A stretch of DNA of 64,000 bases from NCBI RefSeq assembly GCF_017377795.1, contig NZ_JAFRDR010000013.1, positions 1-64,000 of the forward strand, in the 5' to 3' direction. This DNA is from Williamsia soli (GTDB lineage: Bacteria; Actinomycetota; Actinomycetes; Mycobacteriales; Mycobacteriaceae). The notes beneath the pieces are model-generated. The model made no database searches. It saw only the letters and a program-made list of their open reading frames with translations, and was not told the origin of the DNA. The stretch's first letter is position 1. Each line of letters begins with the position of its first letter. Made by a program: the position numbers and the translations under genes. This document shows positions 2,345 to 16,018 of the stretch, piece by piece.

Positions 2345-2379
2345 GGTACACAAAGGGCACTTCAAGGAGACGTGGTTTC

Positions 2380-2760
2380 ATGACCGATACCCCCGGCACG
2401 GCGGTCGAGCTGACCATCAGCGCGCCACACCGCGAGTTACTCGATCAAGTGCTCGACAAGTGGTCTTTGGCGGTGCTCAACGAACTCTGCGAGCGCCCCT
2501 GCCGGTTCAACAACCTGCGACGGGCGATCCCGACCGTCACTCAGAAGTCGCTGACCGCAACACTCCGCAAGCTCGAACGGAACGGGATCATCGAGAGGGT
2601 GCTGCTGAGTTCACGCCCGGTCGCGGTCGAGTATCGGATCACCCCGCTGGGCAAAACACTCCGGCCGCCGATCGACGTGATCCTGCACTGGGCAACCGTG
2701 CACATGCCGGCCATCGAACGCGCTCGCGAAAGTTTTGACGCTGCCGAGGACGGCGCATAG
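2380..2760 (+). CDS. HxlR family winged-helix transcriptional regulator
   Basis: A 126-aa single-domain regulator with the HxlR pattern: DKWSLAVLNELCERPCRFNNLRRAI (split: DKWSLAVLNELC then RFNNLRRAI), then a recognition helix (TQKSLTATLRKLERNGIIER) and a wing (VEYRITPLGKTL). The ATG at 2380 has AAGGAGA upstream and excludes 30 unlikely residues of a longer frame from 2290. It lies divergent to the RidA-like gene with an inverted repeat between them, so local control is likely. Members often sense reactive electrophiles; the signal here is unknown. Confidence 0.9.
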   Translation: MTDTPGTAVELTISAPHRELLDQVLDKWSLAVLNELCERPCRFNNLRRAIPTVTQKSLTATLRKLERNGIIERVLLSSRPVAVEYRITPLGKTLRPPIDVILHWATVHMPAIERARESFDAAEDGA

Positions 2761-2796
2761 CCGCTGCTGCTCAGACTCGGGGGTGCCCTAGAGACC

Positions 2797-2834
2797 GCTA
2801 TGCCCCGCCTCTGTCACAGAGTGCGGGGCATAGC
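2797..2834. terminator. Hairpin terminator
   Basis: Perfect 12-bp stem GCTATGCCCCGC / GCGGGGCATAGC with a 14-nt loop, 36 bp after the HxlR stop and 25 bp beyond the end of the minus-strand micropeptide frame at 2859-2945. It can end transcription from both sides. Confidence 0.75.
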
Positions 2835-2858
2835 AGTGTCGTTCGCGTCAGCGAAGCG

Positions 2859-2945
2859 TCAGCCGAGCAGACCGCTCAGGGACTCTGCGTTGTCAATGAG
2901 GAACTGAAAGATGTCGAGCAAAGCGATTTCGAAGGTCGAAGTCAT
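2859..2945 (-). CDS. Candidate 28-aa hydrophobic micropeptide
   Basis: A 29-codon frame (28 aa) starting at ATG 2945, preceded by GAAAGG, with 20 of 27 sense codons after the start ending in G or C, and followed by the hairpin at 2797-2834. The product is helical-looking and rich in Leu, Ile and Phe with four acidic residues and no basic ones (it contains STFEIALLDIFQFLID). It resembles the micropeptide at 22625-22714 in length, in an ST near the N-terminus, and in an L-[LF]-D-[IV] core. No function is known; it could be a membrane-active or anchor peptide, or a chance frame. Confidence 0.45.
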   Translation of the reverse strand: MTSTFEIALLDIFQFLIDNAESLSGLLG

Positions 2946-3460
2946 CGTAGATACCTTTCGTGTGTTCGTATTGTTCCGCAGCCGAGGTCGACAACGGTCG
3001 AGGACGGCCAGGCCCTACAGCAGGCCCTGCGTCATCGGAACCGATTGTGGCACTTTTTCGTTCGCCGTGCATGCAGCTGCCTCACAAACACGACCCGACC
3101 TGACCTGAGCGAATTATGTTGTTAGACAATGTATTAACTATTCATGTATCGACCGGTACACCGAAATGAGACCTCCAGTGTGCCTACTCTTGGCGAAGAC
3201 GTCACCTCTACGTCATACAACGTTCGCCGCGCCGTGGGGTGCGAAGCAACGCATTTCCGCGACTGCCGCGGAGTAGTGGAGCTGTTCGTCCGGACACCTG
3301 TTCGCCCGGTGTTCACATCGCGGTACCGATCAATCATTCATCGAGCAACAGTCGCCGCCTACCGTGACCACCAGCAAGACACGATCGTGAAGACAGATGC
3401 GATTGCCGACTGCGTGTCAGTCGATTCCCAGTCATTCGTTCGCCTTCTGGAGGCCCCGTT
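2946..3460. other. 515-bp intergenic region, AT-richer than its surroundings
   Basis: No convincing gene. The centre (about 3105-3150) is notably A/T-rich around TATGTTGTTAGACAATGTAT, unlike the high-GC neighbours, and could hold promoters for the micropeptide (minus) and the secreted hydrolase (plus). The short frames here have poor codon use and no ribosome sites. Confidence 0.5.
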
Positions 3461-4387
3461 TTGTATAGATCAGCGATCGCTGCCGCATGCCTCAGTGTCG
3501 CCGCGGCCGGAACTCTGGTGAGCACGTCGATGTCGGCCGCAACGCCGGCCGCACAAGGTTCATGCCCCGAGCAGGTCACGTTCGCAGTAGGCGGCACCGG
3601 AGACACCCATTCGCAACACGTTCCGGGCGTTCCGGCAGGCCCACGCGAGAACATCGACTATCCCGCGTCCATTCGACCGATCGGCGTGGTCACCGGCAAC
3701 GAGTCGATCTTGGTCGGCACCGATGAGCTCGACTCACGAGCACGGTCTTACCGCACCCGCTGCCCAGACACCCACATCAATGCCCAGGGATACAGCCTGG
3801 GGGCCGTTGTGGTCGGGGCAGTCTGCGACCGATGGCAGATCGACACCGTGATGAGCCACAACACCGAGTGCACCACCGTCGGCAACCCCAGCCGCCCCCA
3901 GCGAGATGGGACGTCCGGCATCTTGGGACAGATCCCACCGATCGTGCCCGGATTGGCGGTCGACCGACAGAAAAATTCCGGCCCGATTCCTGTCACCGAC
4001 GTCTGCAACTCGAACGACATCATCTGCAACGCACCCAATCCCGTCGTCAACCCGCTCGAGTTCGCCAACGGAATCCTCGGCTACTACGAGGGCGACCATG
4101 GCTACGCCCAACCCATTCCGAACAACCCTGGTGACTACGTGTACTACCAGCAGCCCCGCATCGAAGGTGCGCGGCCGACGACACCCGCACTGCAGTCTCT
4201 ACCTACCGTCCCGGCTGTCCTTGATGCCGTCGAACAGGGGCACTGGCCTGCGCCCGCCGACACCATCTCGCCGACCATGGACTCCCCAAATCCGACCGCA
4301 CCGCACGTTCCCTGGGCTCCGCCGGAACTCGTCGACGCCGCATTCCGCGTAGCCGCCGCGTTGGCAGCAAACGTCATCGACGAATAG
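3461..4387 (+). CDS. Secreted PE-PPE/cutinase-like serine hydrolase
   Basis: A 308-aa exported alpha/beta hydrolase. Residues 1-25 form a signal peptide ending near SMSA. The nucleophile elbow is GYSLGA with Ser112; a likely Asp186 (in SNDIICN) and His213 (in DHGYAQP) complete the triad in the spacing of cutinase and PE-PPE-domain (PF08237) esterases. Cys-rich segments fit disulfides outside the cell. The TTG at 3461 is chosen because TGGAGG lies 8 nt upstream and it gives a clean signal peptide. The gene is monocistronic and followed by a strong terminator. Likely substrates are esters of lipids or polyesters; this cannot be narrowed from sequence. Confidence 0.8.
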   Translation: MYRSAIAAACLSVAAAGTLVSTSMSAATPAAQGSCPEQVTFAVGGTGDTHSQHVPGVPAGPRENIDYPASIRPIGVVTGNESILVGTDELDSRARSYRTRCPDTHINAQGYSLGAVVVGAVCDRWQIDTVMSHNTECTTVGNPSRPQRDGTSGILGQIPPIVPGLAVDRQKNSGPIPVTDVCNSNDIICNAPNPVVNPLEFANGILGYYEGDHGYAQPIPNNPGDYVYYQQPRIEGARPTTPALQSLPTVPAVLDAVEQGHWPAPADTISPTMDSPNPTAPHVPWAPPELVDAAFRVAAALAANVIDE

Positions 4388-4403
4388 ACCTCACCCGGAC
4401 TCT

Positions 4404-4445
4404 GATCGTCACGCCGGGCCATGATCTGGTCCCGGCGTGACGATC
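4404..4445. terminator. Bidirectional hairpin terminator
   Basis: Perfect 15-bp stem (GATCGTCACGCCGGG / CCCGGCGTGACGATC) with a 12-nt loop, between the convergent hydrolase gene (ending 4387) and the end of the lanthipeptide operon (4451). Confidence 0.85.
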
Positions 4446-4450
4446 GGGCG

Positions 4451-4702
4451 CTACTTCTTGAGCAGTGACGCCAGGTGGGTCGCCGACTTCAGTCCGAGTC
4501 GTGGTTCTGCCTTACGGATTTCCGCGATCGCATCGACCTGCTTGTTCGGCGGGATGCCGGCGGCTTGAAGCACTCCCTCGGCCCAGGTGATCGCGCGGTT
4601 GATCGCTTCGGTAGCGTCGGGACCCTGCCCGGTTCCGAAGACCTCCACGATTTCTTCCCGAGGGTTGCGGTGGTCACCGACGATCAGGTTTTTCAACGAC
4701 AT
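4451..4702 (-). CDS. 83-aa protein of unknown function, last gene of the lanthipeptide operon
   Basis: A soluble, mostly helical 83-aa protein with a GGAGA ribosome site before the ATG at 4702. It has no signal peptide, no Cys and no membrane segment; it ends in ATHLASLLKK. I do not recognise the family. It lies 59 bp downstream of the ABC permease in the same direction and before the terminator at 4404-4445, so it may belong to the operon. Candidate roles are immunity or an accessory factor, but an unrelated small protein is equally possible. It lacks the Ser/Thr/Cys-rich C-terminus needed for a third precursor. Confidence 0.7.
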   Translation of the reverse strand: MSLKNLIVGDHRNPREEIVEVFGTGQGPDATEAINRAITWAEGVLQAAGIPPNKQVDAIAEIRKAEPRLGLKSATHLASLLKK

Positions 4703-4761
4703 CGTGTCTCCTTCGTGTTGGTAGACATGCGATCTGCACGTCAGATCTGAATATCGGGTGT

Positions 4762-5616
4762 TCAGTAGCCCCGCGCGGCTCGTCGTTGCGCGAGAGCTTC
4801 GAGTCGGGCACCCGATTGGCGGCGGGTCATCACCCGCAACGCCCGCGGCGCGAGGATGAGACCCAGCGCCGCCCATGCCACGGGTACTCCGATGGCCGTC
4901 ACGGCCTGACCGGCACTGTCGAACGTGGTCCCAGGGACCAGCGTGACCCGTGACAACAATCCCAGCCAGTAGACCGGGAAAACCTTGATCGGCACCGTCA
5001 GCCAATCCGGCATCGATGCGATCGAGAAGAAGATGCCCGACACGGACATCAGGGCATACGCCACCAACGAGATCGGGAAGATCGCGAGCGGCGACTTGAT
5101 CAGACTGCCGACCACCGAGCCCATGGGCACCGTCGCGAACAGGGTCAGCACCGCCACCCCGGTGAGTGCCGCCCAGCCCAGGATGGTCCCGGGGAGGATC
5201 GGTGCGACGAAGATGTCCGCCGGGATGAGCAGTAGCAGCGCGGTGACCACGCCGGTGACCCACAGACTCAACGTCTTTCCGACGAGGTAGCCCGCCAAAC
5301 CGTAGGGCAGGGTCCGCACCCTGAGCATGGTCCCGTCGTCCTGTTCTGCGACGAGCTCACCGCAGATTCCCACGAATCCGCCGACGAACAGCGACGCCGC
5401 CGCGATCCCGGCCAACATGCCGGTGGCACCCTGACCGCCCAGGAAGTCGCTGACGTCGACGTTGAGGAAGACCACCACCAGCACCGCCGGGACGATGAGA
5501 TGCCCCAGAGCGCTCGGCCGGGTGAAGCGGTTGATGATCTCGACCTTGGCCTGCAACGCACCGAATTTCAGGACCCTGAGCTGTGTGGAGCCCGGTGCCA
5601 TCGTGGTGGCAGTCAT
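4762..5616 (-). CDS. ABC-2 type transporter permease (lanthipeptide export/immunity)
   Basis: A 284-aa integral membrane protein with about six hydrophobic segments (for example LIVPAVLVVVFLNVDV and VVTALLLLIPADIFVAPIL), matching the ABC-2 permease family of drug and peptide exporters. Its ATG overlaps the stop of the ATPase gene (ATGA), so the two are translationally coupled and form one transporter. It sits downstream of the modification and maturation genes, fitting export of, or self-protection against, the finished lanthipeptide. Confidence 0.87.
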   Translation of the reverse strand: MTATTMAPGSTQLRVLKFGALQAKVEIINRFTRPSALGHLIVPAVLVVVFLNVDVSDFLGGQGATGMLAGIAAASLFVGGFVGICGELVAEQDDGTMLRVRTLPYGLAGYLVGKTLSLWVTGVVTALLLLIPADIFVAPILPGTILGWAALTGVAVLTLFATVPMGSVVGSLIKSPLAIFPISLVAYALMSVSGIFFSIASMPDWLTVPIKVFPVYWLGLLSRVTLVPGTTFDSAGQAVTAIGVPVAWAALGLILAPRALRVMTRRQSGARLEALAQRRAARGY

Positions 5617-6524
5617 CGCTGTACCTCCCCGTTGTCTTCACGCACGATCGAGAGATAGACCTGTTCGAGGGTGCCGCGGCGCACCTCCAGGTCCCAGGCG
5701 TGCTCGCTGCCGGTCACCAGGTCGCGAACCAGTGCATCCGAGTCGGCCACCGTCCGGCGTTGCGGGCCCTGCGCCGACATCCACGTGACGGTGCTGGTCG
5801 ACGCCAGCGTCGACCGCAGTTCGGTCGGACTGCCATCGGCAACCACCTGACCGCGGTTGAGGATGATGATCCGCTCGCACATCTCTTCGGCCTCGTGCAG
5901 ATTGTGGGTGGCCCAGATGATGGTGGTGCTCTGCGCCAGATTGTGGATGAGTTCGTAGAAGGACTGTCGTATCTCCGGATCGAAACCGGTTGTCGGTTCG
6001 TCGAGGAACAGTAGTTCCGGACGGCTGATGAGCGCCGCCGCCACGTCGACCCGCCGCCGCTGACCGCCCGACAGTGACCTGATCTGCTGACCGGCACGGT
6101 CCCCTAGTTCCACTGCCGCAAGCAGTTCGGGGACGGGCCAGAGGTCGGTCACCCCGGCGGCGCGATGGGCCGCACTCACGTACCGCAGAAAGTCGGCGAC
6201 TTTCCAGGTCCCGTGATCCCGCCAGGCCTGCAACACCACGCCCAGCCGCGACCTCCATTGTTCCGGTGCGCTGTCGGGCTGGTGTCCGAGCACGGACACC
6301 TGACCGCCGGACGGACGGCGCATGCCTTCGAGGATCTCGATCAGGGTGGATTTGCCTGCGCCGTTGGGCCCCAGTACCGCCACCTTCTGCCCGGCCGGTA
6401 TGTCGAACGTCAGATCATCGAGAACATCCGTTGTCCCGTACCGCATTCGGAGGCCGTCAACGCGGATCGCGGCGGCGCCCTTCGCCACGGAGTCGATCAT
6501 GTCTGCTGTCATCGAGCTGCTCAT
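5613..6524 (-). CDS. ABC transporter ATP-binding protein (lanthipeptide export/immunity)
   Basis: A 303-aa ATPase with Walker A GPNGAGKST, signature LSGGQRRR, Walker B LLFLDEPT and an H-loop WATHN. The order and the C-terminal extension are those of DrrA-like ATPases that partner ABC-2 permeases. The ATG at 6524 overlaps the stop of the upstream gene (ATGA) and its own stop overlaps the permease start, giving a tightly coupled pair. It should energise export of the modified peptide or resistance to it. Confidence 0.92.
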   Translation of the reverse strand: MSSSMTADMIDSVAKGAAAIRVDGLRMRYGTTDVLDDLTFDIPAGQKVAVLGPNGAGKSTLIEILEGMRRPSGGQVSVLGHQPDSAPEQWRSRLGVVLQAWRDHGTWKVADFLRYVSAAHRAAGVTDLWPVPELLAAVELGDRAGQQIRSLSGGQRRRVDVAAALISRPELLFLDEPTTGFDPEIRQSFYELIHNLAQSTTIIWATHNLHEAEEMCERIIILNRGQVVADGSPTELRSTLASTSTVTWMSAQGPQRRTVADSDALVRDLVTGSEHAWDLEVRRGTLEQVYLSIVREDNGEVQR

Positions 6525-7453
6525 GGTGGTGTCCCATCGGTGGCTTGATGTTGGTGCTCGGCCGGTGGCTGCCCGCGCTCGAGCAGCCATGTCACGAAAG
6601 GCGCCAGCGTGGCGCAGTGTGCGGTACTTGCGGTGGTGACGGAGAAGTCGATCATGTGCAGTGCGATACGCGCGGCGGCCACGGCGCCGAGTACCGCCTG
6701 ATCCAAGACGCGATCAGACTCCGAGCTGTAGCCCGCGATCAATGCCTCGGCCGCCCGAGGGTACGCGTCCGGGTGATCACACCCGTTCGCTCGCGCCGTG
6801 AACTCGAACTCCGTCAGCTCCCCGACCATCCACCCCAGATCCAATTCCGGTGATCCCGAGCAGATCTCAGGTCCGATGACCACTTCTACGAATGTGTGAT
6901 CCGAATCCGCGACAACGGACCCCAGGCTGAATCCGCCATGGCACAGCACAGCCGTGCCCCGCTCGGCGGCGGCGTCGGCCACGGACTGCAGACGCGCAAC
7001 CGCTTTCGGCGACAGCCATCCGACGGCGGCAGCAGCTGGGCCGGCGGGCTCGGCAAGGTAGCGGCGCAGCCGTTCTACGTGCGGACTGACGTCACCGATG
7101 GGCGGCGGAGCACTCCGGTGCAGGGTTGCCAGCAGGCGCCCGAGGTCCGTCATGGTCGACAGTCCGGCGCCCCCGGGCAGAAAGGCCGGTGCCACCTGCG
7201 GCCACAACTGCGTGGCGAGTTGTTCGTCGCCTCGCAACGAACACCGTTGCGAATCACTCGATGTCGACGCGGACGTCCACACGAGGTGAACCTGCCCGGA
7301 CGGCGCCACCGGCGGTGTCACCGCCTGCGAAGCCCGATCACGCGTGGCGTCGCGGTACGTCCTGGTCAGCACGAACCCGTCCTCGTCGCGCGCCAGTTGC
7401 TGCCACCACACCGCGGTGTCGAATTCCCAGACGATCGTCTGCGCGGCGGTCAT
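6521..7453 (-). CDS. Degenerate aminoglycoside-phosphotransferase-like protein of the lanthipeptide cluster
   Basis: A 310-aa protein with an APH/choline-kinase-like C-terminal lobe in which the catalytic signature is decayed. The usual HGDxxxxN loop reads HGGFSLGS, and the metal-binding segment IDWE is replaced by IGPE, followed by a recognisable DLGWMVGE. The catalytic Asp and metal Asp are therefore absent, so phosphorylation is unlikely. It overlaps its neighbours on both sides (ATGA). Class V lanthipeptide systems need a third protein (LanX) besides kinase and lyase; this may fill that role or help bind the leader. That assignment is inference; only the fold resemblance is visible. Confidence 0.65.
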   Translation of the reverse strand: MTAAQTIVWEFDTAVWWQQLARDEDGFVLTRTYRDATRDRASQAVTPPVAPSGQVHLVWTSASTSSDSQRCSLRGDEQLATQLWPQVAPAFLPGGAGLSTMTDLGRLLATLHRSAPPPIGDVSPHVERLRRYLAEPAGPAAAAVGWLSPKAVARLQSVADAAAERGTAVLCHGGFSLGSVVADSDHTFVEVVIGPEICSGSPELDLGWMVGELTEFEFTARANGCDHPDAYPRAAEALIAGYSSESDRVLDQAVLGAVAAARIALHMIDFSVTTASTAHCATLAPFVTWLLERGQPPAEHQHQATDGTPP

Positions 7454-8064
7454 GCTGTTTCTGCCTTGGTTGTCACACTCGATACCAGTGCGCCCGACAG
7501 TGCCTGCGCAGCAGCGGGGAACAGTACGGGTGGCAGCCCCTCGAGAGCTGGGTCGCTCACGCTGAAACCCTTCATCGGTGGCAGCAACTCGACGTTCGGT
7601 CGCAGTGCCAGCGCCGTGCAGTACTGCTTCCACACAGGTGTTCTCGTGAATCCGGGTGGCGCCGACGCCGCGACCACCACCGGGGCGAGACTTCCCTGGA
7701 TGGCCAGCATCGCCGGTGAGTCGCAGAGGCCCGCCGACAATCTGGACACGAAATGCATGGTGGCCGGGTGGACGAGGTACCCGTCGGCCCACTGCCCGAG
7801 TTCGACGTGCACGGGACGTTGCTCGTTGTCCGACCACGTGTCGATCAGGGGCTCGTAGCCGAATCCGCGGATCGTGCCCAGTCCGACGAACTGGAGGGCC
7901 GACGGGGTCAGCACCACGCGGATCTCGGTGCTCGGTGACGTCGAACTCAGCCAGCCCAGCCACGAATGCAGAAACGACGCCCCGAGGGCCCCGGTGGCCA
8001 TGACGACGATTCGGCGGTCGGCAAGGCCTTCGATGGAATAGGTACTCGGATCCGACTCGGTCAT
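7450..8064 (-). CDS. LanD-type flavoprotein cysteine decarboxylase (HFCD family)
   Basis: A 204-aa member of the homo-oligomeric flavin-containing Cys decarboxylases. It has an N-terminal Rossmann strand (RIVVMATGALGASFL), a His in RPVHVEL at the position of the EpiD active-site His, and the flavin-binding VHPATMHFVSRLSAGLCD, matching the PATAN...GIADNL pattern. Such enzymes oxidatively decarboxylate a peptide C-terminal Cys to an enethiolate, which becomes S-aminovinyl-(methyl)cysteine. Both precursors in this operon end in Cys, which is exactly what the enzyme requires. The start and stop overlap the neighbouring genes. Confidence 0.85.
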   Translation of the reverse strand: MTESDPSTYSIEGLADRRIVVMATGALGASFLHSWLGWLSSTSPSTEIRVVLTPSALQFVGLGTIRGFGYEPLIDTWSDNEQRPVHVELGQWADGYLVHPATMHFVSRLSAGLCDSPAMLAIQGSLAPVVVAASAPPGFTRTPVWKQYCTALALRPNVELLPPMKGFSVSDPALEGLPPVLFPAAAQALSGALVSSVTTKAETA

Positions 8065-9092
8065 CGGGCCGCCACCGCCTCGGTCCGGGTCGACATCACA
8101 TAGGGCACCGCGCTTTCCGGCAACACCAGAGACGCAGCGGACTTCGCGTCCGCCACCGCGAGAATCTCTTCGAGGTCGTCGACCGCGTGTCCGGCACCGT
8201 ACATCTTGGATACCCCGAACACATTGAGTACCACTTCGTCGACCCCGCGTTCCTGTAGGCGGGTCATCGCAGCGACGATCTCGTCGGCCGACCCGTACAG
8301 GTACGTATTCGACGACACCAGCTCGCCGGCGCCTGCCCACGGATCCGCCGGGTCAGCCGGGATGCCTGCCGATCGGAGCATGGCCGTGTAGTGGGGTGCG
8401 GCCAGGTGCGCACCGACCGCGGCGTGGGCAAGCTGTCTCGGGTCGCGGCCGGGGCGACGAACAGCAGCGTGGACCACGCTCGCGACTCGCGGCGCGGGCC
8501 GCATCGACTCGGCTGCTGCCGAACGCATCTCCGGGATCAGGGTGTGCTCGAGGTACTCCTCGGGCGTCAGCCACGTGATGGCCCACTCTGCCTTGCCGCC
8601 TGCGCATCTGGCCATGCTCGGCCGCAGGACACCGAGGCCGGTCTCCACCGACCCGAACAGTTTGTCGACGCGTTCAGGCCCGTCGGCGGGCCCGGTTTGC
8701 AGCGGGCGCGGAATGATGGTCTTCACCTGGTCCAGGAATTCACCTGCCTGACGAACAGGAGCTTTCATCGGGGCACCGAAGACAGCGCGCTGGAACGCAG
8801 TACTACCCGGACCGACGCCGGCGACGTAGGTCTGCCCGGTCAACCGCCCGATCGATTGGGCCTGTACGGCGAATCCATGGGAGTGGAACAAGGGATAGAG
8901 CGCCACCGCACTGCCGAACGGCAGGGCGTAACCCCGCCCGGCCAGTCCAGCCATCGTCAGATGCGAATCGACGGTCGATGAGTGGCCGAACCACAGTCGG
9001 TGCCCGCCGCGGCGTGCCGCTTCCGCGTAGGGGATCACCGGTCCGATGGCAGTTGGCATCTCGGGATAGAAGACTCCGATGTTCGAGTTCAC
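8061..9092 (-). CDS. F420-type luciferase-like oxidoreductase (candidate LanJ dehydroamino-acid reductase)
   Basis: A luciferase-like (LLM) TIM-barrel flavin/F420 enzyme of about 343 aa, with VAGVGPGSTAFQRAVFG and a C-terminal ERGVDEVVLNVFG segment of the family. In lexapeptide-type class V clusters an F420H2-dependent LLM reductase converts dehydroalanine to D-Ala; placement between the peptidase and LanD genes favours that role here. The GTG at 9092 overlaps the upstream stop (GTGA) like its neighbours; an alternative GTG at 9104 would add four residues. F420 rather than FMN use is inferred from relatives and context. Confidence 0.8.
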   Translation of the reverse strand: MNSNIGVFYPEMPTAIGPVIPYAEAARRGGHRLWFGHSSTVDSHLTMAGLAGRGYALPFGSAVALYPLFHSHGFAVQAQSIGRLTGQTYVAGVGPGSTAFQRAVFGAPMKAPVRQAGEFLDQVKTIIPRPLQTGPADGPERVDKLFGSVETGLGVLRPSMARCAGGKAEWAITWLTPEEYLEHTLIPEMRSAAAESMRPAPRVASVVHAAVRRPGRDPRQLAHAAVGAHLAAPHYTAMLRSAGIPADPADPWAGAGELVSSNTYLYGSADEIVAAMTRLQERGVDEVVLNVFGVSKMYGAGHAVDDLEEILAVADAKSAASLVLPESAVPYVMSTRTEAVAAR

Positions 9093-10237
9093 AATTCGAC
9101 CCACTTTCCGTTACAGGGATTGGGTGACATCACCAGCGCGTGGAATCCGGTCGGCCGGTAGAGGTCGTGAAGGGTTCGAGAGATCGCCGTGCCGGCGCTC
9201 GCGCACAGCTCGGCGGGTGTCCTGCTGGTGTCGAGGGCAGACGGGAGCGAGCCTTCGAGCACCGCTGCCCGTTCGTCCGCAGCACCTTGCATATGGTCCC
9301 GGTCCACGATGGTGCGGCCACGGAGGTAGCTCGCCGCGGCCAGCATGGTGCTGTCCGACAGGGGTTCTGCCGAGAACGTCTCCAGCGCAGTGCGGATGGC
9401 CGCGTCGCAGCTGCTTTCGTCGCCGGGGGTGGTCTGCACGTCGATGACCAGTAGGTGTCGGCCATCGCGATGTAGGAGGGTCGACTGCGGGCTGTAGCTC
9501 AGGCCGCGTTCCCGGCGCACCAGGTCCACCAGGAGCGAGCCGTGCACACCGCCGAATGCGACGTTCACCAGACTCCGGGCGAGCTGTTCGGATCCGTCGG
9601 CCGGCGGGGTCAGGAAGCGGTACCAGCGAACCCAGGACGACCGCACGGGAACGCGGGCCCACCGTCGGGTCGCCACCGGCTCTGGGATCGTCTCCGGGGC
9701 CGCAGACTCTTCTGGGCGGGCAAGGGGCGGTTGGTCGTCAACGCCGGTGGACAGCGCACGACAGATCTTGTCCCGCGCGGCATCCAGATCTCCTGTGTTG
9801 CCCCCACCGGATACGACGACATCGAAGACGAGAGTCGGGAGCAATGCCGCAAGCCGGCCTTCGCGCTGCGGTCCGGCACTGTCGTCGACGCTGTCGAAGG
9901 TGAGGGCCGTGATCAATTCGGCCGGTGACGTCGGGGGCTGAGCGCCGGCCACGGGTGTGGAATGCAGACGCTCACGCCACGTGGTCAAAGACGTTGCCAA
10001 GATGTCGATGTCCCACTCTCGGGCCCGGCTGGTGCAGGTGACAACGATGCCCTCGGGTCCGGCGACTGCACGCCCCGCGTGCAGCCCGACTTCATGCAGG
10101 GCCAGTGTCATCGCCCGTGCCAGTCGCGTCCGGTCGGCCCAGTCGACCGCAGGGCGGGCGACGAGCGCGACGTACAGGAGGTCGGTTCCACCGCGGCGCG
10201 GTATATCGGGGGCGGCAACAGCTTCGGTGGTCGTCAT
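9089..10237 (-). CDS. M16-family peptidase-like protein, non-catalytic partner
   Basis: A 382-aa M16 (pitrilysin/MPP-fold) protein without any HxxEH zinc motif. It keeps the Arg/Tyr element of substrate-binding M16 domains in RRERGLSYSPQSTL and a FGGVHGSLLVDLV helix before it. That is the pattern of the non-catalytic subunit in M16 heterodimers (MPP alpha, PqqG-like). It overlaps the catalytic partner gene by ATGA and likely pairs with its product to remove the leader from the lanthipeptide. Its length equals two M16 domains. Confidence 0.82.
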   Translation of the reverse strand: MTTTEAVAAPDIPRRGGTDLLYVALVARPAVDWADRTRLARAMTLALHEVGLHAGRAVAGPEGIVVTCTSRAREWDIDILATSLTTWRERLHSTPVAGAQPPTSPAELITALTFDSVDDSAGPQREGRLAALLPTLVFDVVVSGGGNTGDLDAARDKICRALSTGVDDQPPLARPEESAAPETIPEPVATRRWARVPVRSSWVRWYRFLTPPADGSEQLARSLVNVAFGGVHGSLLVDLVRRERGLSYSPQSTLLHRDGRHLLVIDVQTTPGDESSCDAAIRTALETFSAEPLSDSTMLAAASYLRGRTIVDRDHMQGAADERAAVLEGSLPSALDTSRTPAELCASAGTAISRTLHDLYRPTGFHALVMSPNPCNGKWVEL

Positions 10238-11466
10238 GCCGGCACCTCCGCTCGGTGCACCGCGGACCGCAGCATGGCGACAGGGGTGTGTGCGACGCGG
10301 TGGAGGTAGGCCTCGACATCTGGGGCCGAGACCAGCTCGACGTTCCTACGCCGCTCGAGTGTGTCGAGACCGAACACGGTGTCGCGAGCCAGCAGCGCGG
10401 AGAAGGTCGCCGTACTCGACAGCGTCTTGTCGATCCCGTCGAGCGCCTTCGCGACAGCCCGATCCAGCAGGCGACGATCCGCACCGGCGAGGTCCCGTGG
10501 GAACCGGGCGACCGGACCGCCGGCGCTCGGACCACTGCCGATCAGAATGTTCCGGTCAGGGCCCATCGTGGGACCGAAAAGCCCGAGTTGCCAGTGCGTT
10601 CGGTTCTGGACCAGGTTCGCCCACTCGACGGCGACGATGGCAGCCGCATCGGTCGCTTCCCTGTTGATGGAGGAGCTGCCGGCAACATATTGCACCGACG
10701 CGTGCATGGGGATCAGTGTGGCCACACTGCCGTGCACGTCGTGTGGGCCGTCGAGCACACCCACCATTCCATCGTCCTCGGTGTCGTCGGCCCCAGCGGC
10801 GCCACCGACAGCGTCGATCACATCGTGGGGTTCCCACGGGCCGACCACGGCGACGGAGTGATGGCTCCGGCGATAGGTCCGGTCCCAGAACTGCTCGACA
10901 CCGTCCACCGATGCCGCCTCGAGGTCCGTCAGATCAGAGAACCCGTTGTGCCGCAGCCCATGGTCTGAGCTCAGTGCCGAGAGTGCGTCGATCCAGGGAA
11001 AGCCCGCGACCGGCGAAGACGACATCCGTAGCGCCACTTCTTGGCGAATGACCGCCTTCTCGCGATCGAGGTCGACGGGGGTGATCGGCGGCGACGTGGC
11101 GCGGCGGCGGGCGAGGTCGATCCAGTGCACCAGGTCCTGCCGCGCCGGAGCGGGGATCGCGAAACTGAATTCAGTGTGAAACGGGTATGTCTGGGCATTG
11201 GAGAGGCCACCGACTGCCAGGATGCAACCCTCCACGAGATGCCCGAACTGATCGCGGACGCTCTGATGCGCGAGATGCTCGGTCAAGTGGGCGAATCCGG
11301 CCTCACCCGGCTGCTCGTGGGCCGTCCCGACGGGTACGACGACGGTGACACCAAGGGTGCGTGCGCCGGGGATCCGGCCCACGGAAAGTTTGTTGCGACC
11401 GATGGTTCCGCGACTCACCGACAGCTCGGTCGCCGCGATGGGCGTCATGATCTGGCTGGTCGTCAT
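10234..11466 (-). CDS. M16-family zinc peptidase, catalytic subunit (leader removal)
   Basis: A 410-aa M16 metallopeptidase. The inverted zinc motif HxxEH is present as HLTEH (His60, Glu63, His64), and the distal EKAVIRQE element supplies the third ligand (Glu143 by spacing). The usual glycine-rich loop precedes the motif (GTAHEQPGEAGFAH). It is the first gene after the two precursor genes and the intercistronic hairpin, and its stop overlaps the non-catalytic M16 partner. The most economical role is proteolytic release of the leader from the modified precursors. Confidence 0.9.
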   Translation of the reverse strand: MTTSQIMTPIAATELSVSRGTIGRNKLSVGRIPGARTLGVTVVVPVGTAHEQPGEAGFAHLTEHLAHQSVRDQFGHLVEGCILAVGGLSNAQTYPFHTEFSFAIPAPARQDLVHWIDLARRRATSPPITPVDLDREKAVIRQEVALRMSSSPVAGFPWIDALSALSSDHGLRHNGFSDLTDLEAASVDGVEQFWDRTYRRSHHSVAVVGPWEPHDVIDAVGGAAGADDTEDDGMVGVLDGPHDVHGSVATLIPMHASVQYVAGSSSINREATDAAAIVAVEWANLVQNRTHWQLGLFGPTMGPDRNILIGSGPSAGGPVARFPRDLAGADRRLLDRAVAKALDGIDKTLSSTATFSALLARDTVFGLDTLERRRNVELVSAPDVEAYLHRVAHTPVAMLRSAVHRAEVPA

Positions 11467-11531
11467 CGTTCACCTGTCCGTCCTCGTGGGTGCCGACTGG
11501 ATCGATCACGGTGTGCTTGCGCTCCCGGGGA

Positions 11532-11565
11532 TTGCCGCGGGGGCACCGTGACGCCCCCGCGGCAA
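11532..11565. terminator. Intra-operon hairpin between precursor and peptidase genes
   Basis: Perfect 13-bp stem (TTGCCGCGGGGGC / GCCCCCGCGGCAA) with an 8-nt loop just downstream of the second precursor on the minus strand, and with no T-run. A partial terminator or mRNA-stabilising hairpin here would raise precursor mRNA over enzyme mRNA, a common RiPP arrangement. Confidence 0.7.
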
Positions 11566-11580
11566 CGCTGTCAGGTCAGC

Positions 11581-11787
11581 TCAGCAGCCGGCCCCGATGG
11601 TGATGCTGGTGCTGGTGACGACTCCGGCGCTCGCGCCGATCGAGAACGCTGCGCACTCCGGGCTCGATGCCGTCGCGAAGACGGAGATCGGGCTGATGCC
11701 GGGAGCGGACTCGACGCTCACCTGGGCGAGTTCTTCACCGCGTGCGTAGTTGCTGTAGCCGGAGATGAGTGACTGTGAGTTGGGCAT
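11581..11787 (-). CDS. Class V lanthipeptide precursor peptide, second copy
   Basis: A 68-aa precursor with an AAAGGA ribosome site before the ATG at 11787. The leader (about residues 1-40) shares QSLISGYSNYA and ESAPG with the sister precursor. The core probably begins near SSPEC (residues 41-45) and is Ser/Thr/Gly/Ala-rich, with only two Cys: Cys45 and the C-terminal Cys68. Thr63 lies five residues before the last Cys, suiting an aminovinyl-methylcysteine ring; Cys45 can form a (methyl)lanthionine with Ser41 or Ser42. The exact leader/core boundary cannot be fixed from sequence. Confidence 0.88.
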   Translation of the reverse strand: MPNSQSLISGYSNYARGEELAQVSVESAPGISPISVFATASSPECAAFSIGASAGVVTSTSITIGAGC

Positions 11788-11873
11788 ACCATGTCCTTTG
11801 CTCGTGAATGCTGGTCAAGTGAAAGAGATTTGTTCGAACAAGTAGAGCTGTACTGCTGGGTGGTCGCGCGTGC

Positions 11874-12077
11874 TCAGCAACCCCAGGCGATGGTCGCCCC
11901 GACGCCGCCGGAGCTCACTACGCTCACGGCCGTGCCACATGCGGTCGACGACACACCGATGAAACTCAGAATGCCCGGCGTCGCGGACGGAGCTGTTTCA
12001 CTCATCTCGGTCAACTCCGGTGCTGCCGCATAGCTACGGTAACCAGCCACCAACGATTGTGTAACCGTCTCTGACAT
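11874..12077 (-). CDS. Class V lanthipeptide precursor peptide, first copy
   Basis: A 67-aa precursor. ATG 12077 has GGAAGGA upstream and excludes ten residues of a longer frame. The leader has QSLVAGYRSYA, PEL and ETAPS, aligned with the sister peptide. The likely core starts near SSTAC (residues 43-47), is rich in Ser, Thr, Val and Gly, and ends in TIAWGC. Cys47 and Cys67 are the only cysteines; Thr62 sits at Cys minus five. From memory, the core of the class V peptide cacaoidin also starts SSxxC and ends with Thr at minus five and WGC, a striking match. It lies 84 bp downstream of the HopA1-type lyase gene. Confidence 0.92.
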   Translation of the reverse strand: MSETVTQSLVAGYRSYAAAPELTEMSETAPSATPGILSFIGVSSTACGTAVSVVSSGGVGATIAWGC

Positions 12078-12161
12078 GAAGGTCCTTCCTTTCGGTCGTT
12101 CGGTCATTGCTTCAATTCGAGGAGCGTGCCCCTCGCCTGGCCGGGTGCGGCCAAGACTTGT

Positions 12162-13142
12162 TCAGAGCACCGGAGAATCAAGATTGCGATACACCGCACC
12201 GGGATCGACGTTTGCGGTGATCAACGCTCGACGGATTGCTCTGTGAATCTGGGGGTCCGGCTCGGCGGCTTCGGCGACGATGGCCCGCGCGATCGTGTTG
12301 CTCCGATGTTCGCCAAAGCTCGTACCGCCACGCGGCGCCGCCGTGTCCACAGGTTCCCACGCCATCGACACACCGTTCGTGAGCTGATGCCCGAACAGGG
12401 ACACTGGCGCATTCGGACGTTCGCTGCGCAGATGATCGGCGATCTCGCCGACCGCGTGCAGACTCTCCGATGGCAGGTAGACCACCATCGCGTCGTTTCG
12501 TGGGAATCCCGAACGCCGGGAGACGATCTTCACCCGCAGCGGAATCCCACGCTCCTCGACCCAGCCGATGAACGATGACCACACCTGCACTGCTTCCTCC
12601 GGATCACCGAGGTGGCGATACAGGCGCAGCAGACGCGAGGTGTGGCCGCCGCCGGCAGATGACGTGTAGAACATGAACCCTAGTGACAACCGGCTCTCCA
12701 CCGACGGAACCGTCGCCACCGCGCTGTGCTCGCTCTCCGACAGAATCGCCGGTGGCTCGAAGAACACGCGAATACCGTTCAGGGACAGCACGAGACCGGA
12801 TTTGCCCGGCGCCCGTTCGACCATCGTCAGCCGGGACTGCCGATGCTTGACCGGTGTCGCCTCGTATAGACGGTGTTCCAGTTCCGGGTCCTCGAGCAGC
12901 GCCGGGATGAACTCGCCGTCGCCGCCTGCGACCATGCCGGCGTGGTACGTGCGGTACAGGTGTCCGCCCAGATCACGATGCAACTCGGCTGTGGTCTGCG
13001 CGACGATCTCTGTTCCGTCCACCACGATCTCGCATCCTCGTGGACCGGAGACGGCGTGCCGGGTGATCCGCGAGACCAACCATTCGATGCCGGGGTCGAG
13101 CGTGCGCGTCAGAACAGGCTGTGTTGTGGCCGTCGTGGTCAT
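12162..13142 (-). CDS. HopA1-type lanthipeptide lyase (class V LanY-like)
   Basis: A 326-aa protein with the C-terminal HopA1 effector-like domain. Visible family marks are LGFMFYTSSAG, an ESLHAVGEIADHL helix and the terminal TSFGEHRSNTIARAI motif (about residues 274-288). In class V lanthipeptides and thioamitides this family eliminates phosphate from phospho-Ser/Thr to give dehydroamino acids. It overlaps the kinase gene by ATGA and lies immediately before the precursors, the textbook kinase-HopA1-precursor arrangement. Confidence 0.87.
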   Translation of the reverse strand: MTTTATTQPVLTRTLDPGIEWLVSRITRHAVSGPRGCEIVVDGTEIVAQTTAELHRDLGGHLYRTYHAGMVAGGDGEFIPALLEDPELEHRLYEATPVKHRQSRLTMVERAPGKSGLVLSLNGIRVFFEPPAILSESEHSAVATVPSVESRLSLGFMFYTSSAGGGHTSRLLRLYRHLGDPEEAVQVWSSFIGWVEERGIPLRVKIVSRRSGFPRNDAMVVYLPSESLHAVGEIADHLRSERPNAPVSLFGHQLTNGVSMAWEPVDTAAPRGGTSFGEHRSNTIARAIVAEAAEPDPQIHRAIRRALITANVDPGAVYRNLDSPVL

Positions 13143-14230
13143 GCTGCGTACCGCCCTTCGGTCAGGCCGAGGACCTCGGCGTAGTCCCCTCCGCCGAGAA
13201 TGGCTTCTCGCCCGATACCTGCAAGCGCTCGGTCCAGAGCTGACAACCGTCCGAAGTACGTGCCTGCCGCCAGCGCCCGGTCGAACAACTGCCAGCCGAA
13301 GTACTGCACGCCACGTGCCACGAAATCGCTGGTGATGCCGGGCCGCTCGTCCCGGTAGGCCTCCCAGACGGTCCGTGCTGCGGGCATGGCTTCGGACAGG
13401 GCGGTGGTGCCGCGCTCTATGATCTCGTCATCGGTCACCGAACCCTCGTCCCCGCCGGCAAAAGAGGCCAGGCTCTTGCGAACCCGGTGATAGAAGACCT
13501 CACCCATCAGTGCGCCCACGTCTCGTGCGCCGTCCTCGAGCCGAAAGTCCTCCCAATCCAGGATCCAGTTGGCGGTTTCGGTCAGCAGGATCTGGTCGCC
13601 GCGGAGATCGCCGTGGATGGGCACACGCGGGGTGTCGACTTTCGCAAGGATGTTGAGCGCTTCTCGCAATTCGTTGTCCGACTGGATGATCCGCCACATG
13701 TCCAGCTGGCCCATGGTCGATCCATAGTACATCTGCAGGGAGATGGCGTTGGGCCCGTGGGGCGGAAAGAACGGATTGGTGTGGTCGGTCGCGTCCGCGT
13801 ACTGCACGGGAAGATTGTGCAGTCCGGCGACGCACCGGCCGACGCGGGCGAGCGTCACCGCGTCCATCTCGTCGTCCCGGATCATTTTTCCTGCACTCTC
13901 ACCGCCGGTGATGTACTCGTACACGACGGTGTGGGAGACGTCGTCTCGGGCCAACAGAGCCGGGGTCGACGTGTCCCGCGACGGATCGGACAGATCGAGC
14001 GACTCATGGAAGGACACGCTACGGAAGTAGCGTTCTGCCGCCCCCAGACCGGTCATCCTCTTGATGAAGACCACCTGGTTGTCACTGAATGTGATACTGC
14101 CGCTGATGTTTCGGCCGAGCAGCGGCTGTACATCCTCGACGTCGGATTCGGACCTGTCCAGCTTCGGGAAGATGTGCGAGACGGAATCGAGCAATTGTCG
14201 TTCTTGTTGCCGCAGAGGCGTCTTGGTCAC
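13139..14230 (-). CDS. APH-type Ser/Thr kinase of class V lanthipeptide synthesis (LanK-like)
   Basis: A 363-aa kinase of the aminoglycoside phosphotransferase fold with intact catalytic elements: beta-3 lysine in FIKRM (Lys57), the catalytic loop HGDLRGDQ (Asp208, with Gln213 in the usual Asn position) and the metal Asp in ILDWED (Asp225). It should phosphorylate core Ser/Thr as the first half of dehydration, the HopA1-like partner doing elimination. The GTG at 14230 overlaps the methyltransferase stop (GTGA); a longer frame to 14308 lacks a ribosome site and would overlap that gene more. Confidence 0.88.
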   Translation of the reverse strand: MTKTPLRQQERQLLDSVSHIFPKLDRSESDVEDVQPLLGRNISGSITFSDNQVVFIKRMTGLGAAERYFRSVSFHESLDLSDPSRDTSTPALLARDDVSHTVVYEYITGGESAGKMIRDDEMDAVTLARVGRCVAGLHNLPVQYADATDHTNPFFPPHGPNAISLQMYYGSTMGQLDMWRIIQSDNELREALNILAKVDTPRVPIHGDLRGDQILLTETANWILDWEDFRLEDGARDVGALMGEVFYHRVRKSLASFAGGDEGSVTDDEIIERGTTALSEAMPAARTVWEAYRDERPGITSDFVARGVQYFGWQLFDRALAAGTYFGRLSALDRALAGIGREAILGGGDYAEVLGLTEGRYAA

Positions 14231-14967
14231 TTCGCCTGCTCCTTGCGATAGAGCGACAGACACCTCGGACTGTCGGGCCCGAAAGGGGTGGTGCCCCAGT
14301 CGGCCCATCGCTCGGCCACGACCAAGCCGGCGATCCGCGCAACTGCGTCCATCTCGAGAGGAAAGAGGTAGCGCAGCACGTGCGTGTAGTTGAACTGGTC
14401 ACCGTTTTGCAGCACCAGATTCTGCGAGATCAGCAGTTGACGAGTCGGTTCCACCACATACTGTTCCAACTGCGTGATCTCTTCGCTCAACTGCCTCATC
14501 TGCGCGTCGGGCTTGCGCAGTCCGTGATACTGATTCGGATTGAAGGTCTCGACGAGGAAGAAGCCGTCATCGGCCAGGGCCGCGGCCGCGTTGCGAAAGA
14601 CCGCGATCTGCTCGTCCAGCGTCTTCGCGACGAACAGGGTGTTGATCATCAGCAGTACCGCGTCGAAGGTTCCCTCCGCGGGTTCGCCGATGAAGTCCTG
14701 CTCGACGACCTTGACCAGGCCCTCGGTGTCCTTCTCCTTCAGAATGGTGAGCATGTCGGTGGATATGTCCAGCCCAGTCACCTCAAACCCGCTCTGCGCC
14801 AACGGAAGAGCAATCCGTCCGGTACCCACACCGTATTCGAGCACACGAGTCCCAGCGGTCCTCGAATGCATGAAATCACACAACGTCGCGATGTCGTCGA
14901 AGAAGTCCGGATAGAGCAGATCGTAGATCTGGGCGATTCGGGATGGGTAGAGATTCTGTACAGACAT
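14227..14967 (-). CDS. Class I SAM-dependent methyltransferase of the lanthipeptide cluster
   Basis: A 246-aa Rossmann methyltransferase with motif I VLEYGVGTGRIALPLA, motif II GLDISTDML and a post-II FDAVLLMINTLF stretch. It is the first gene of the minus-strand operon. Related clusters methylate the N-terminal amine of the mature peptide, sometimes to N,N-dimethyl; that is the likeliest job here. ATG 14967 is chosen for the N-terminus MSVQNLYPSR; an upstream ATG at 14985 would add six residues. Confidence 0.88.
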   Translation of the reverse strand: MSVQNLYPSRIAQIYDLLYPDFFDDIATLCDFMHSRTAGTRVLEYGVGTGRIALPLAQSGFEVTGLDISTDMLTILKEKDTEGLVKVVEQDFIGEPAEGTFDAVLLMINTLFVAKTLDEQIAVFRNAAAALADDGFFLVETFNPNQYHGLRKPDAQMRQLSEEITQLEQYVVEPTRQLLISQNLVLQNGDQFNYTHVLRYLFPLEMDAVARIAGLVVAERWADWGTTPFGPDSPRCLSLYRKEQAK

Positions 14968-15275
14968 GAGCAATTCCCTTCTCATACCGGTAGTTTGGCG
15001 TCTAGCGCGCAATAGCGGCGCGGGTGCGAGGCACCCTGCTGTATCGAAACTCTTGCTGTAAACCTTGGTTCGTTCCCGCTGCAACCGAGAGTATTGATGA
15101 ATGCGCCGACCTTCAACGCGATGCCGCCTCTCACAGCCTTGTTCAGTCAGTGTTCACATCCACGCCACCAACCCGTTATCACCGTCGAGTCAAGCGGACC
15201 GAGCTTCCAATTAGGCTGCTACGCATCGCCGCAGGACGCAGTGGGATCAGAGCATCCGTTCGCCGCGGTATGAAG
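14968..15275. promoter_or_regulatory. 308-bp region holding the lanthipeptide operon promoter
   Basis: No credible gene. It separates the 3' end of the minus-strand tetR from the methyltransferase start, so the promoter for the whole minus-strand lanthipeptide operon must lie here unless tetR is co-transcribed. I could not assign -35/-10 boxes with confidence. Confidence 0.5.
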
Positions 15276-15911
15276 TCAGGTCAGCGCGGGTTGGTTCAGC
15301 GGGCGCCGCGACACCTCACGCGCTTCGGACTTGCTCAAGCCGAACATCGTGAGCAAGCTTGCGGCCAGATCATCTGCGACAGAATCGGTATCGAGCGAGG
15401 GGTCGTGTTCGAGCAGGTGGATGCACCCGAACAGCGCGCCCGCCGTGCAGGCCACAGCCATCGCCGTGTTGTCGATGTCGAGACGACCTGACGCGACGGC
15501 TGCCTCGAGATCGCGGTAGGCACGCGGCGCCAGCCCCTCTGGACTGTCCAGATAGCGGAAACCGACCTGAATCATCGTGTGGGCCACCTTGGGGTGCGAC
15601 ACCCTCATCCGAAGAGTCATTCGCACCCCGGCGGCGAAGACCTCTGCAGGATCGTCGAGTCCGGCGCACGCCTCGTCGAACAACCTGCCGTGGAGTTCGA
15701 GGACGGTGCTGATGGCGACCTCGAACAGCTCTGACTTACTGGCGAAATGGTTGTAGAACGACCCGAGCCCGACATCAGCGCGGTTGGTGATGTCTGAGAT
15801 GCTCGCCTCGGTGCCCTGTGGAGTGGCCAGCAAATCGCAGGCCGCGTCGACGAGAGCTGCTCTGGTGCGCGCCTTGCGGCGCTCGAGGCGGGTCGCCGGG
15901 ATTTCCTCCAC
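15276..15911 (-). CDS. TetR family transcriptional regulator
   Basis: A 211-aa TetR protein: N-terminal HTH with SISDITNRADVGLGSFYNHFASKSELF (family pattern ADVGLGSFYNHF) and a helical effector domain. The GTG at 15911 gives a normal N-terminus (MEEIPATRLERRKARTRAAL). It is divergent from the dioxygenase operon at 16019, with a long inverted repeat in the gap, so it most likely represses that catabolic operon. Its 3' end faces the lanthipeptide operon in the same direction, so read-through into that operon is possible. Confidence 0.9.
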   Translation of the reverse strand: MEEIPATRLERRKARTRAALVDAACDLLATPQGTEASISDITNRADVGLGSFYNHFASKSELFEVAISTVLELHGRLFDEACAGLDDPAEVFAAGVRMTLRMRVSHPKVAHTMIQVGFRYLDSPEGLAPRAYRDLEAAVASGRLDIDNTAMAVACTAGALFGCIHLLEHDPSLDTDSVADDLAASLLTMFGLSKSEAREVSRRPLNQPALT

Positions 15912-15968
15912 TGGACCAGCCTAGACCATTCAGTTCTGAATCTGATTCCAACACTGAACGTCGTTGAC

Positions 15969-15998
15969 GAACCGGACGTCACAAGTGACGATCGGTTC
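15969..15998. promoter_or_regulatory. Candidate TetR operator for the dioxygenase operon
   Basis: Inverted repeat with 14-bp arms matching at 12 positions (GAACCGgaCGTCAC and its partner GTGACGatCGGTTC) around AA, ending 20 bp before the GTG of the dioxygenase gene and upstream of the divergent tetR. Position and symmetry fit a TetR dimer site. Confidence 0.65.
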
Positions 15999-16018
15999 AG
16001 AAAGGTTGGTGATCTACC

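What the first reader, a model, noticed from the sequence alone, without database searches (positions are those of the whole stretch)
4451..14967. Complete class V lanthipeptide gene cluster outside the usual Streptomyces setting
Seen: one minus-strand run in which most stops overlap the next start, containing an intact APH-type kinase (HGDLRGDQ), a HopA1-type protein (TSFGEHRS), two Cys-terminated precursors, an M16 pair, an LLM reductase, an HFCD decarboxylase, a methyltransferase and an ABC exporter. Known: kinase + HopA1 lyase + decarboxylase + F420 reductase + M16 peptidases characterise lexapeptide/cacaoidin-type class V lanthipeptides. Inference: a new lanthipeptide system in a mycolic-acid-containing actinomycete, possibly Gordonia.
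Basis: partly seen in the sequence, partly recalled or inferred. Interest (0 to 1): 0.93.

Follow-up and report, generated by a model that had tools for sequence, protein, structure and literature searches.

The report
Class V lanthipeptide cluster in Williamsia
An actinomycete of the genus Williamsia carries a complete, intact 13-gene set that should make two ring-shaped, chemically modified peptides of the recently described class V lanthipeptide kind; it is a real new member of a known family rather than a new kind of system.

Summary
LxmK/CaoY active-site residues, CaoA leader contacts and both ring motifs are present. Corrections: the genus is Williamsia, not Gordonia; predicted class V clusters outside Streptomyces are already in print. 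Added here: the cluster is in 6 of 9 searched genomes of the genus, in at least two contexts; a cluster-free relative has the matching flanks 0.9 kb apart; the two precursors have the lowest dN of all the cluster's genes and are identical to those of Williamsia sp. 1135; a hairpin with compensatory changes follows the precursor pair. Product and activity are unknown. New member of a known kind.

The parts
14227..14967 (-). M: N-terminal alpha-N-methyltransferase, CypM/CcbJ type (246 aa)
   Evidence: Pfam Methyltransf_25 48.9 bits; best solved relatives CcbJ 91.9, YunM 68.3, CypM 54.3 bits
13139..14230 (-). K: LanK Ser/Thr kinase (363 aa, GTG start)
   Evidence: NF038156 LxmK 281.6 bits, cut-off 315; LxmK 9dk1_A 139.7 bits; D208, Q213, D225, R40, K57 align with the LxmK active-site residues
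12162..13142 (-). Y: LanY HopA1-type phospho-Ser/Thr lyase (326 aa)
   Evidence: PF17914 128.5 bits; LxmY 9dk1_B 79.1 bits; R173, K205, R215, Y222 at CaoY spacing
11874..12077 (-). A1: precursor, 67 aa from the second ATG (open frame to 12107); S-S-T-A-C and C-terminal T-I-A-W-G-C
   Evidence: LxmA leader model 16.6 bits, below cut-off 25; identical protein in sp. 1135, 91% in four other genomes
11581..11787 (-). A2: precursor, 68 aa; S-S-P-E-C and C-terminal T-I-G-A-G-C
   Evidence: LxmA leader model 22.9 bits, below cut-off 25; identical protein in sp. 1135, 81% in four other genomes
11532..11565 (-). Hairpin after A2 without a T-run; candidate attenuator or mRNA stabiliser
   Evidence: Folds in 6 of 6 loci; 11 pairs counted: 98.5% of 66 cells paired, 4 pairs with two-sided change
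10234..11466 (-). P1: M16 peptidase with HLTEH zinc motif (410 aa)
   Evidence: PF00675 36.9 bits; HxxEH in the window and 5 of 5 relatives
9089..10237 (-). P2: M16-like partner without HxxEH (382 aa)
   Evidence: PF05193 24.2 bits, cut-off 23; no HxxEH
8061..9092 (-). J: LLM-family protein, probably F420H2-dependent Dha/Dhb reductase (343 aa, GTG start)
   Evidence: PF00296 57.1 bits; TIGR03564 81 bits, below its cut-off 234
7450..8064 (-). D: HFCD/CypD-type cysteine decarboxylase LanD (204 aa)
   Evidence: PF02441 47.5 bits; CypD family 72.3 bits, below cut-off 215; CypD 6jdd 74.1 bits
6521..7453 (-).
5613..6524 (-). T1: ABC exporter ATPase, DrrA-like (303 aa)
   Evidence: PF00005 101.8 bits; TIGR01188 192.2 bits, below its cut-off 312
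4762..5616 (-). T2: ABC-2 permease (284 aa)
   Evidence: PF12698 44.0 bits
4451..4702 (-). 83-aa protein of unknown function, last gene of the unit
   Evidence: No match in Pfam at E 0.001, PHROGs at 0.1, NCBIfam at 0.01; present at E 1e-5 in the same 6 of 9 genus genomes as the cluster
4276..15263 (.). Stretch that does not align at the homologous site of a cluster-free relative (G007); the lower break lies inside the 3' end of the cutinase-like frame 3461-4387, so the exact junction is not resolved
   Evidence: G007 aligns to window 1743-4275 and 15264-20840 with about 0.9 kb in between

Best explanation
It is a complete class Va lanthipeptide gene cluster that makes two different peptides. 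Inferred order, by analogy with cacaoidin, lexapeptide and rosin: the leader helix of A1 or A2 docks on K and X; D oxidatively decarboxylates the C-terminal Cys to an enethiol; K phosphorylates Ser/Thr of the core and Y eliminates phosphate to give Dha/Dhb; the inner Cys closes a lanthionine on the first Ser of S-S-X-X-C without a dedicated cyclase; X joins the enethiol to the Dhb five residues upstream to give AviMeCys; J reduces some Dha/Dhb to D-Ala/D-Abu with F420H2; P1/P2 remove the leader near the conserved Ala-Pro; M methylates the freed N-terminus; T1/T2 export the product. The hairpin after A2 probably keeps precursor mRNA in excess over enzyme mRNA. Shown by sequence: the genes, their families, catalytic and contact residues, conservation, and the approximate bounds of the unit. 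Not shown: any chemical step, product or activity.
Against: K is under the LxmK model's curated cut-off (281.6 against 315), both precursors are under the leader model's, D is far under the CypD model's (72 against 215), J is under every F420 subfamily cut-off listed and has no PDB sequence match at E 0.001, and Y has no NCBIfam match at E 0.1. X's 6-sequence profile found no PDB sequence at E 1. The K tree groups the Williamsia sequences (100/100) but does not resolve deeper forks, 3 of 4 outgroup kinases fell inside, and no thioamitide kinase was in it. RosX Glu220 cannot be placed with certainty: E215 is the conserved column, E217 fits the raw spacing. No sigma-70-type promoter match (0 found, 1.4 expected by chance). 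No product is known.
Confidence: 0.93

Rival explanations
1. It is a thioamitide or linaridin cluster, which share the kinase/HopA1, the AviCys cyclase or the CypD/CypM enzymes, rather than a lanthipeptide cluster.
For: The closest solved fold to X is thioamitide TvaE; D is nearest to linaridin CypD, and M's second and third PDB sequence matches are YunM and CypM.
Against: No YcaO or TfuA family among the ten enzyme and transport genes; the one YcaO match of the genome lies about 64 kb away, next to MFS and peptidase genes of its own; the kinase and leader families matched are class V ones; both cores have an inner Cys in S-S-X-X-C, as needed for a lanthionine.
Confidence: 0.04
2. The chemistry is class Va, but the two peptides are signals or morphogens rather than antibiotics.
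For: Precursors have the lowest dN of the cluster's genes in all five comparisons; rosin A1 is a class Va peptide without growth inhibition in the strains tested (PMC12291118); no separate immunity gene is recognisable.
Against: PMC12291118 says class V peptides usually are antimicrobial, and cacaoidin, lexapeptide and massatide A are; an ABC exporter can also give self-protection; the cluster is absent from 3 of 9 genus genomes, so it is not a core developmental trait.
Confidence: 0.25
3. The cluster is a decaying, silent remnant.
For: No sigma-70-type promoter match in the region; P1, P2 and X change fast (dN/dS 0.26-0.37).
Against: All 13 frames are intact, catalytic motifs of K, Y, X and P1 are kept in the window and 5 of 5 relatives, dN/dS is well below 1 throughout, and the hairpin is kept with compensatory changes.
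Confidence: 0.03

Closest known systems
Lexapeptide cluster (lxm, Streptomyces rochei; class Va)
   Same: K, Y, X, D, M, an F420H2-dependent reductase, and a P1/P2 pair of which one has the active M16 domain (the name LxmJ is recalled); the solved K-Y complex 9dk1-9dk3 is the only PDB sequence match of K and Y; LxmM belongs to the CcbJ family as M does
   Different: K has only 139.7 bits to LxmK and is below the LxmK family cut-off; two precursors; the 83-aa end gene (not checked in lxm)
Cacaoidin cluster (cao, Streptomyces cacaoi; class Va)
   Same: Leader contact residues, S-S-X-X-C and T-x-x-x-G-C motifs, lyase residues
   Different: Cacaoidin's methyltransferase belongs to a different family, its one M16 protein holds both domains, and it has glycosyltransferases; the window's cores (36-39 residues after Ala-Pro or the next residue) are longer than its 23 residues, with a hydrophobic stretch before S-S-X-X-C
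Rosin cluster (ros; class Va)
   Same: Several precursors, K, Y, D, X, J, P1, P2, ABC genes; lanthionine ring away from the N-terminus
   Different: ros was chosen for lacking an N-methyltransferase; three precursors
Sistertide (sis) and massatide (mat) clusters, class V
   Same: AviMeCys or AviCys; sis has two unlike precursors handled by one enzyme set
   Different: Core sequences; the massatide core is short and starts at the ring motif
Thioamitide clusters (tva, tho)
   Same: K/Y/X/D homologues; X's best fold match is TvaE
   Different: No YcaO/TfuA among the enzyme genes here; two-Cys cores. That YcaO/TfuA make the thioamides is recalled

Membership tests
Class Va lanthipeptide | Standalone LanK (PF01636) with intact kinase residues | tested here: met
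   PF01636 over cut-off; five LxmK active-site residues aligned. The NCBIfam LxmK equivalog cut-off itself is not reached (281.6 of 315)
Class Va lanthipeptide | Standalone LanY (PF17914) with lyase residues | tested here: met
   128.5 bits, cut-off 22.7; R173/K205/R215/Y222
Class Va lanthipeptide | Flavin-dependent Cys decarboxylase LanD | tested here: met
   PF02441 over cut-off; CypD 6jdd 74.1 bits; CypD equivalog cut-off not reached (72.3 of 215)
Class Va lanthipeptide | LanX: kinase fold without kinase catalytic residues | tested here: met
   Model matches TvaE and LxmK; HGG for HGD; HxxD. Place of RosX Glu220 uncertain
Class Va lanthipeptide | No LanC cyclase | tested here: met
   No PF05147 match at E 0.001 in the own genome
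Class Va lanthipeptide | Type-A leader (L/M-24, F/Y-20, Y-17, E/D-12, hydrophobic -11, A-3, P-2) | tested here: met
   A2 in exact register; A1 with one residue fewer before A-P; the NCBIfam leader model's cut-off is not reached by either
Class Va lanthipeptide | Core with (Ser/Thr)2-X-X-Cys and a C-terminal Cys with Thr five residues upstream | tested here: met
   A1 SSTAC and TIAWGC, A2 SSPEC and TIGAGC in two loci; SSTAC and TITWGC, SSPEC and TVGAGC in the other four
[quoted passage not shown]
   Needs expression and MS/NMR
Thioamitide | YcaO plus TfuA for thioamides in the cluster | tested here: not met
   Neither among the ten enzyme and transport genes by Pfam at E 0.1; the only YcaO match is at C4:79394-80413. 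TfuA was not searched genome-wide; that this pair defines thioamitides is recalled
Class Vb lanthipeptide | LanC cyclase | tested here: not met
   definition from PMC12291118

The most novel reading that the evidence does not exclude
The two precursors, present together and under strong purifying selection in 6 of 6 Williamsia loci, act as a two-component class V lanthipeptide: the A1 and A2 products work only jointly, are made by one enzyme set, and are carried on an about 11-kb unit that is gained, lost or moved as a whole. I know of no two-component class V system. One search was made for it (32 papers hold 'class V lanthipeptide' and 'two-component', 10 were listed); I looked up 'two-component' in one of them (PMC11162475), where it refers to class II. 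Against it: several class V clusters carry more than one precursor (sis, ros), and no joint action is reported in the parts I saw.
Probability: 0.18. Interest if true: 0.62.

Novelty: new member of a known kind. Interest (0 to 1): 0.38.

Why it matters
It places an intact, conserved class Va cluster in a little-studied mycolic-acid genus, with exact masses to look for. Because the unit occurs in 6 of 9 searched genomes in at least two contexts, and a relative keeps the flanks without it, the genus offers natural producer/non-producer pairs. The slow precursors beside a fast-changing cyclase and peptidase pair, and the conserved hairpin, are testable features of how class V clusters are run.

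Tried and rejected
Gordonia as host: rejected, the one named relative is Williamsia sp. 1135. This rests on one named contig of 28,387 bases, equal in length and match place to G006:C68, and on the tool's genus grouping, so a split genus name (Williamsia_A is mentioned in PMC10134820) is possible.

Thioamitide or linaridin: rejected, see rivals. Long reading of A1 (77 aa): set aside because of the relatives. TetR gene (15276-15911) as cluster regulator: not supported, since it stays with the flank in the cluster-free G007 and is not found in the 20-kb stretches of 4 of 6 cluster loci. The 83-aa gene as a known family: no match; weak relatives (E 1.7e-8 to 2.1e-5) in 5 genomes of one 2.2-2.4-Mb genus; the one context read by eye shows nothing lanthipeptide-like; a second (L076) was fetched and not read.

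A first structure model of X with 6 sequences was poor (pLDDT 60.1) and was replaced by one with 20. The first K tree was wrong because minus-strand loci were read on the wrong strand; repeated, which still does not resolve class V from other kinases. Absence of a family from the structure lists was not used as evidence.

Supplementary tables of the two large surveys (851 and 1172 clusters) could not be read, so Williamsia may already be in them.
Full report
What is there. The minus-strand run 14967-4451 contains 13 intact genes in the order M, K, Y, A1, A2, P1, P2, J, D, X, T1, T2, orf. Eight of 12 junctions are 4-nt stop/start overlaps; the gaps are Y-A1 84, A1-A2 86, A2-P1 114 and T2-orf 59 nt. 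Pfam assigns all ten enzyme and transport genes above a family cut-off; P2 and X only just (24.2 against 23; 24.6 against 23.2). The last gene (83 aa) has no match in Pfam at E 0.001, PHROGs at 0.1 or NCBIfam at 0.01.

Host. The window is contig C4:1-64000 of a 6.07-Mb genome. The one named relative obtained is Williamsia sp. 1135, NZ_MJEI01000054.1, 28,387 bases, with Y 95% identical; it has the length and match place of G006:C68, which is in the window's genus group. So the genus is Williamsia or a split of it, not Gordonia.

Dehydration. K matches the class V kinase family LxmK at 281.6 bits (E 8.4e-84), below the curated 315. In the PDB sequence set its only match at E 0.01 is LxmK (9dk1-9dk3, 139.7 bits), and Y's only match at E 0.1 is LxmY of the same complex (79.1 bits). 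The LxmK residues that PMC12291118 lists (Asp221, Asp241, Gln226, Arg49, Lys66) align with D208, D225, Q213, R40 and K57 of K, allowing for a 2-residue numbering offset of the PDB chain (my count from the alignment; positions). In Y, R173, K205, R215 and Y222 have the spacing of CaoY R187, K219, R229 and Y236, of which R187, K219 and R229 were tested by mutation (PMC9486802, parts 1-3 of 5 read; spacing). The same spacing is in the five other Williamsia loci.

Precursors. A2's leader has L, Y, Y, E, L, A and P at CaoA positions -24, -20, -17, -12, -11, -3 and -2, taking the residue after Ala-Pro as -1; A1 has the first five in the same places relative to the Tyr but one residue fewer before Ala-Pro (sequences; positions). 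The cores carry S-S-T-A-C ... T-I-A-W-G-C and S-S-P-E-C ... T-I-G-A-G-C, the layout of cacaoidin SSAPC ... TASWGC. They differ from the massatide-like cores (TTVPC... or TTIPC...) seen in three other clusters of the family (L047, L049, L050).

Tailoring and export. M is nearest to CcbJ, YunM and CypM, the type of LxmM, not of the cacaoidin enzyme CaoSC (PMC11447909, passages). J is an LLM protein (81 bits to TIGR03564, below its cut-off). The genome has two CofD matches, consistent with F420, but CofD-like matches also occur in 10 of 14 control genomes and so prove little. P1 has HLTEH or HLSEH in the window and 5 of 5 relatives; the window's P2 has no HxxEH; an active/inactive M16 pair is also described for lexapeptide (PMC8068269). 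T1/T2 form an ABC pair, T1 DrrA-like.

Distribution. A full-length LxmK match (E 1.7e-82 or better) is in 6 of 9 genomes of the genus, own included; the other three have only weak kinase matches of 41 bits or less. In the family, K at E 1e-20 hits 18 of 401 genomes and 6 of 31 genera, own genus included; in a phylum sample the LxmK family at E 1e-30 hits 6 of 396 genomes and 3 of 237 genera. Of the 12 family loci outside the genus, Y is near K in 12 of 12 and D in 11 of 12, and a class V-like precursor was found in 10 of 12 (8, 2 more with a looser pattern). Predicted class V clusters outside Streptomyces are already in print: two Actinoplanes species and an undefined actinobacterium (PMC8068269, section 2.3 read) and five genomes of three Nocardia species (PMC12153302, passages). 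Searches: 'class V lanthipeptide' + 'Gordonia' 0 papers; + 'Rhodococcus' 3 papers, one opened at passages; 'Williamsia' + 'lanthipeptide' 4 papers, one opened at passages, no class V statement there; 'Williamsia' + 'biosynthetic gene cluster' + 'antiSMASH' 16 papers, listing only apart from that one. That does not show that Williamsia is absent from print.

Bounds and movement. Window and sp. 1135 share both flanks (FAH-hydrolase, a 374-aa protein, TetR; cutinase-like), while none of these flank proteins was found in the 20-kb stretches of the four other loci. Genome G007 of the genus, with no strong K match, has TetR (91%) and the cutinase-like gene (90%) on one contig about 0.93 kb apart. 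Its DNA aligns to window 1743-4275 and 15264-20840; in between lies a 262-codon frame that looks like a GAF/ANTAR protein (by eye, not searched). The upper break is thus near 15264; the lower one falls inside the 3' end of the cutinase-like frame, where window and sp. 1135 also fail to align well, so it is not exact. The 83-aa gene is inside, and is present in exactly the six cluster genomes of the genus. Gain and loss cannot be told apart from this.

Selection. Between window and sp. 1135, dN/dS is 0.05-0.12 for M, K, Y, J, D, T1 and T2, 0.26 for P1 and the 83-aa gene, 0.35 for P2 and 0.37 for X; dN is 0 for A1 and A2. Their dS (0.06, 0.11), like that of the 83-aa gene (0.08), is low against 0.22-0.43 for the ten enzyme and transport genes. 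Against the four other loci A1 (91%) and A2 (81%) again have the lowest dN (0.05, 0.10), X is 49-51% and P1 49-52% identical; by plain identity T1 and T2 (82-84%) are above A2, and A2's dN/dS (0.10-0.13) is not the lowest. These are short genes and one method (NG86).

Hairpin. Straight after A2 lies a GC-rich stem without a T-run, in 6 of 6 loci. Over 11 pairs 98.5% of 66 cells pair (0 of 500 shuffles reach this), 4 pairs change on both sides (16 of 500 shuffles reach this), and sliding the partner by 1 to 3 columns drops pairing to 38-65%; one measure, the number of further pair types, is no higher than in shuffles (489 of 500 reach it). Four of the loci are close relatives, so independent changes are fewer than the cells suggest. 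An attenuator or stabiliser that favours precursor mRNA is the natural reading (inference).

Verdict. It is a new member of a known kind. The added facts (two conserved precursors, cluster-free site, hairpin, fast X/P pair) raise the interest moderately.

Noticed in passing
window 11532-11565, minus strand: Hairpin without a T-run directly after the second precursor gene, kept with compensatory changes in 6 of 6 loci.
   Followed up: yes
window 6521-7453 and 9089-11466: X, P1 and P2 change about two to seven times faster at amino-acid level (dN 0.06-0.11 against 0.015-0.028 for the other enzyme and transport genes, window against sp. 1135), although the precursors are identical.
   Followed up: partly
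window 4451-4702: 83-aa gene of unknown function that closes the cluster in 6 of 6 loci; weak relatives in a small-genome genus of the same family.
   Followed up: partly
L074 7097-8024 (G007 C35): Cluster-free relative with the same flanks; an apparent GAF/ANTAR-type gene (by eye) lies where the cluster would be.
   Followed up: partly
L072 14030-17954 (G000 C4:78030-81954), outside the window: YcaO gene with an MFS transporter and an S15-type peptidase in one run, and a nitroreductase-family gene nearby: perhaps a second peptide-modification locus.
   Followed up: partly
L045, L052, L053: D-like and X-like parts lie in one open frame, as in the LanD-LanX fusions mentioned in PMC12291118.
   Followed up: no
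L049 and L050: Clusters in the same family with four and five similar precursor genes having massatide-like cores.
   Followed up: no
window 11581-12077: Synonymous divergence of the two precursor genes is also low, which may mean constraint on the mRNA or recent exchange.
   Followed up: no
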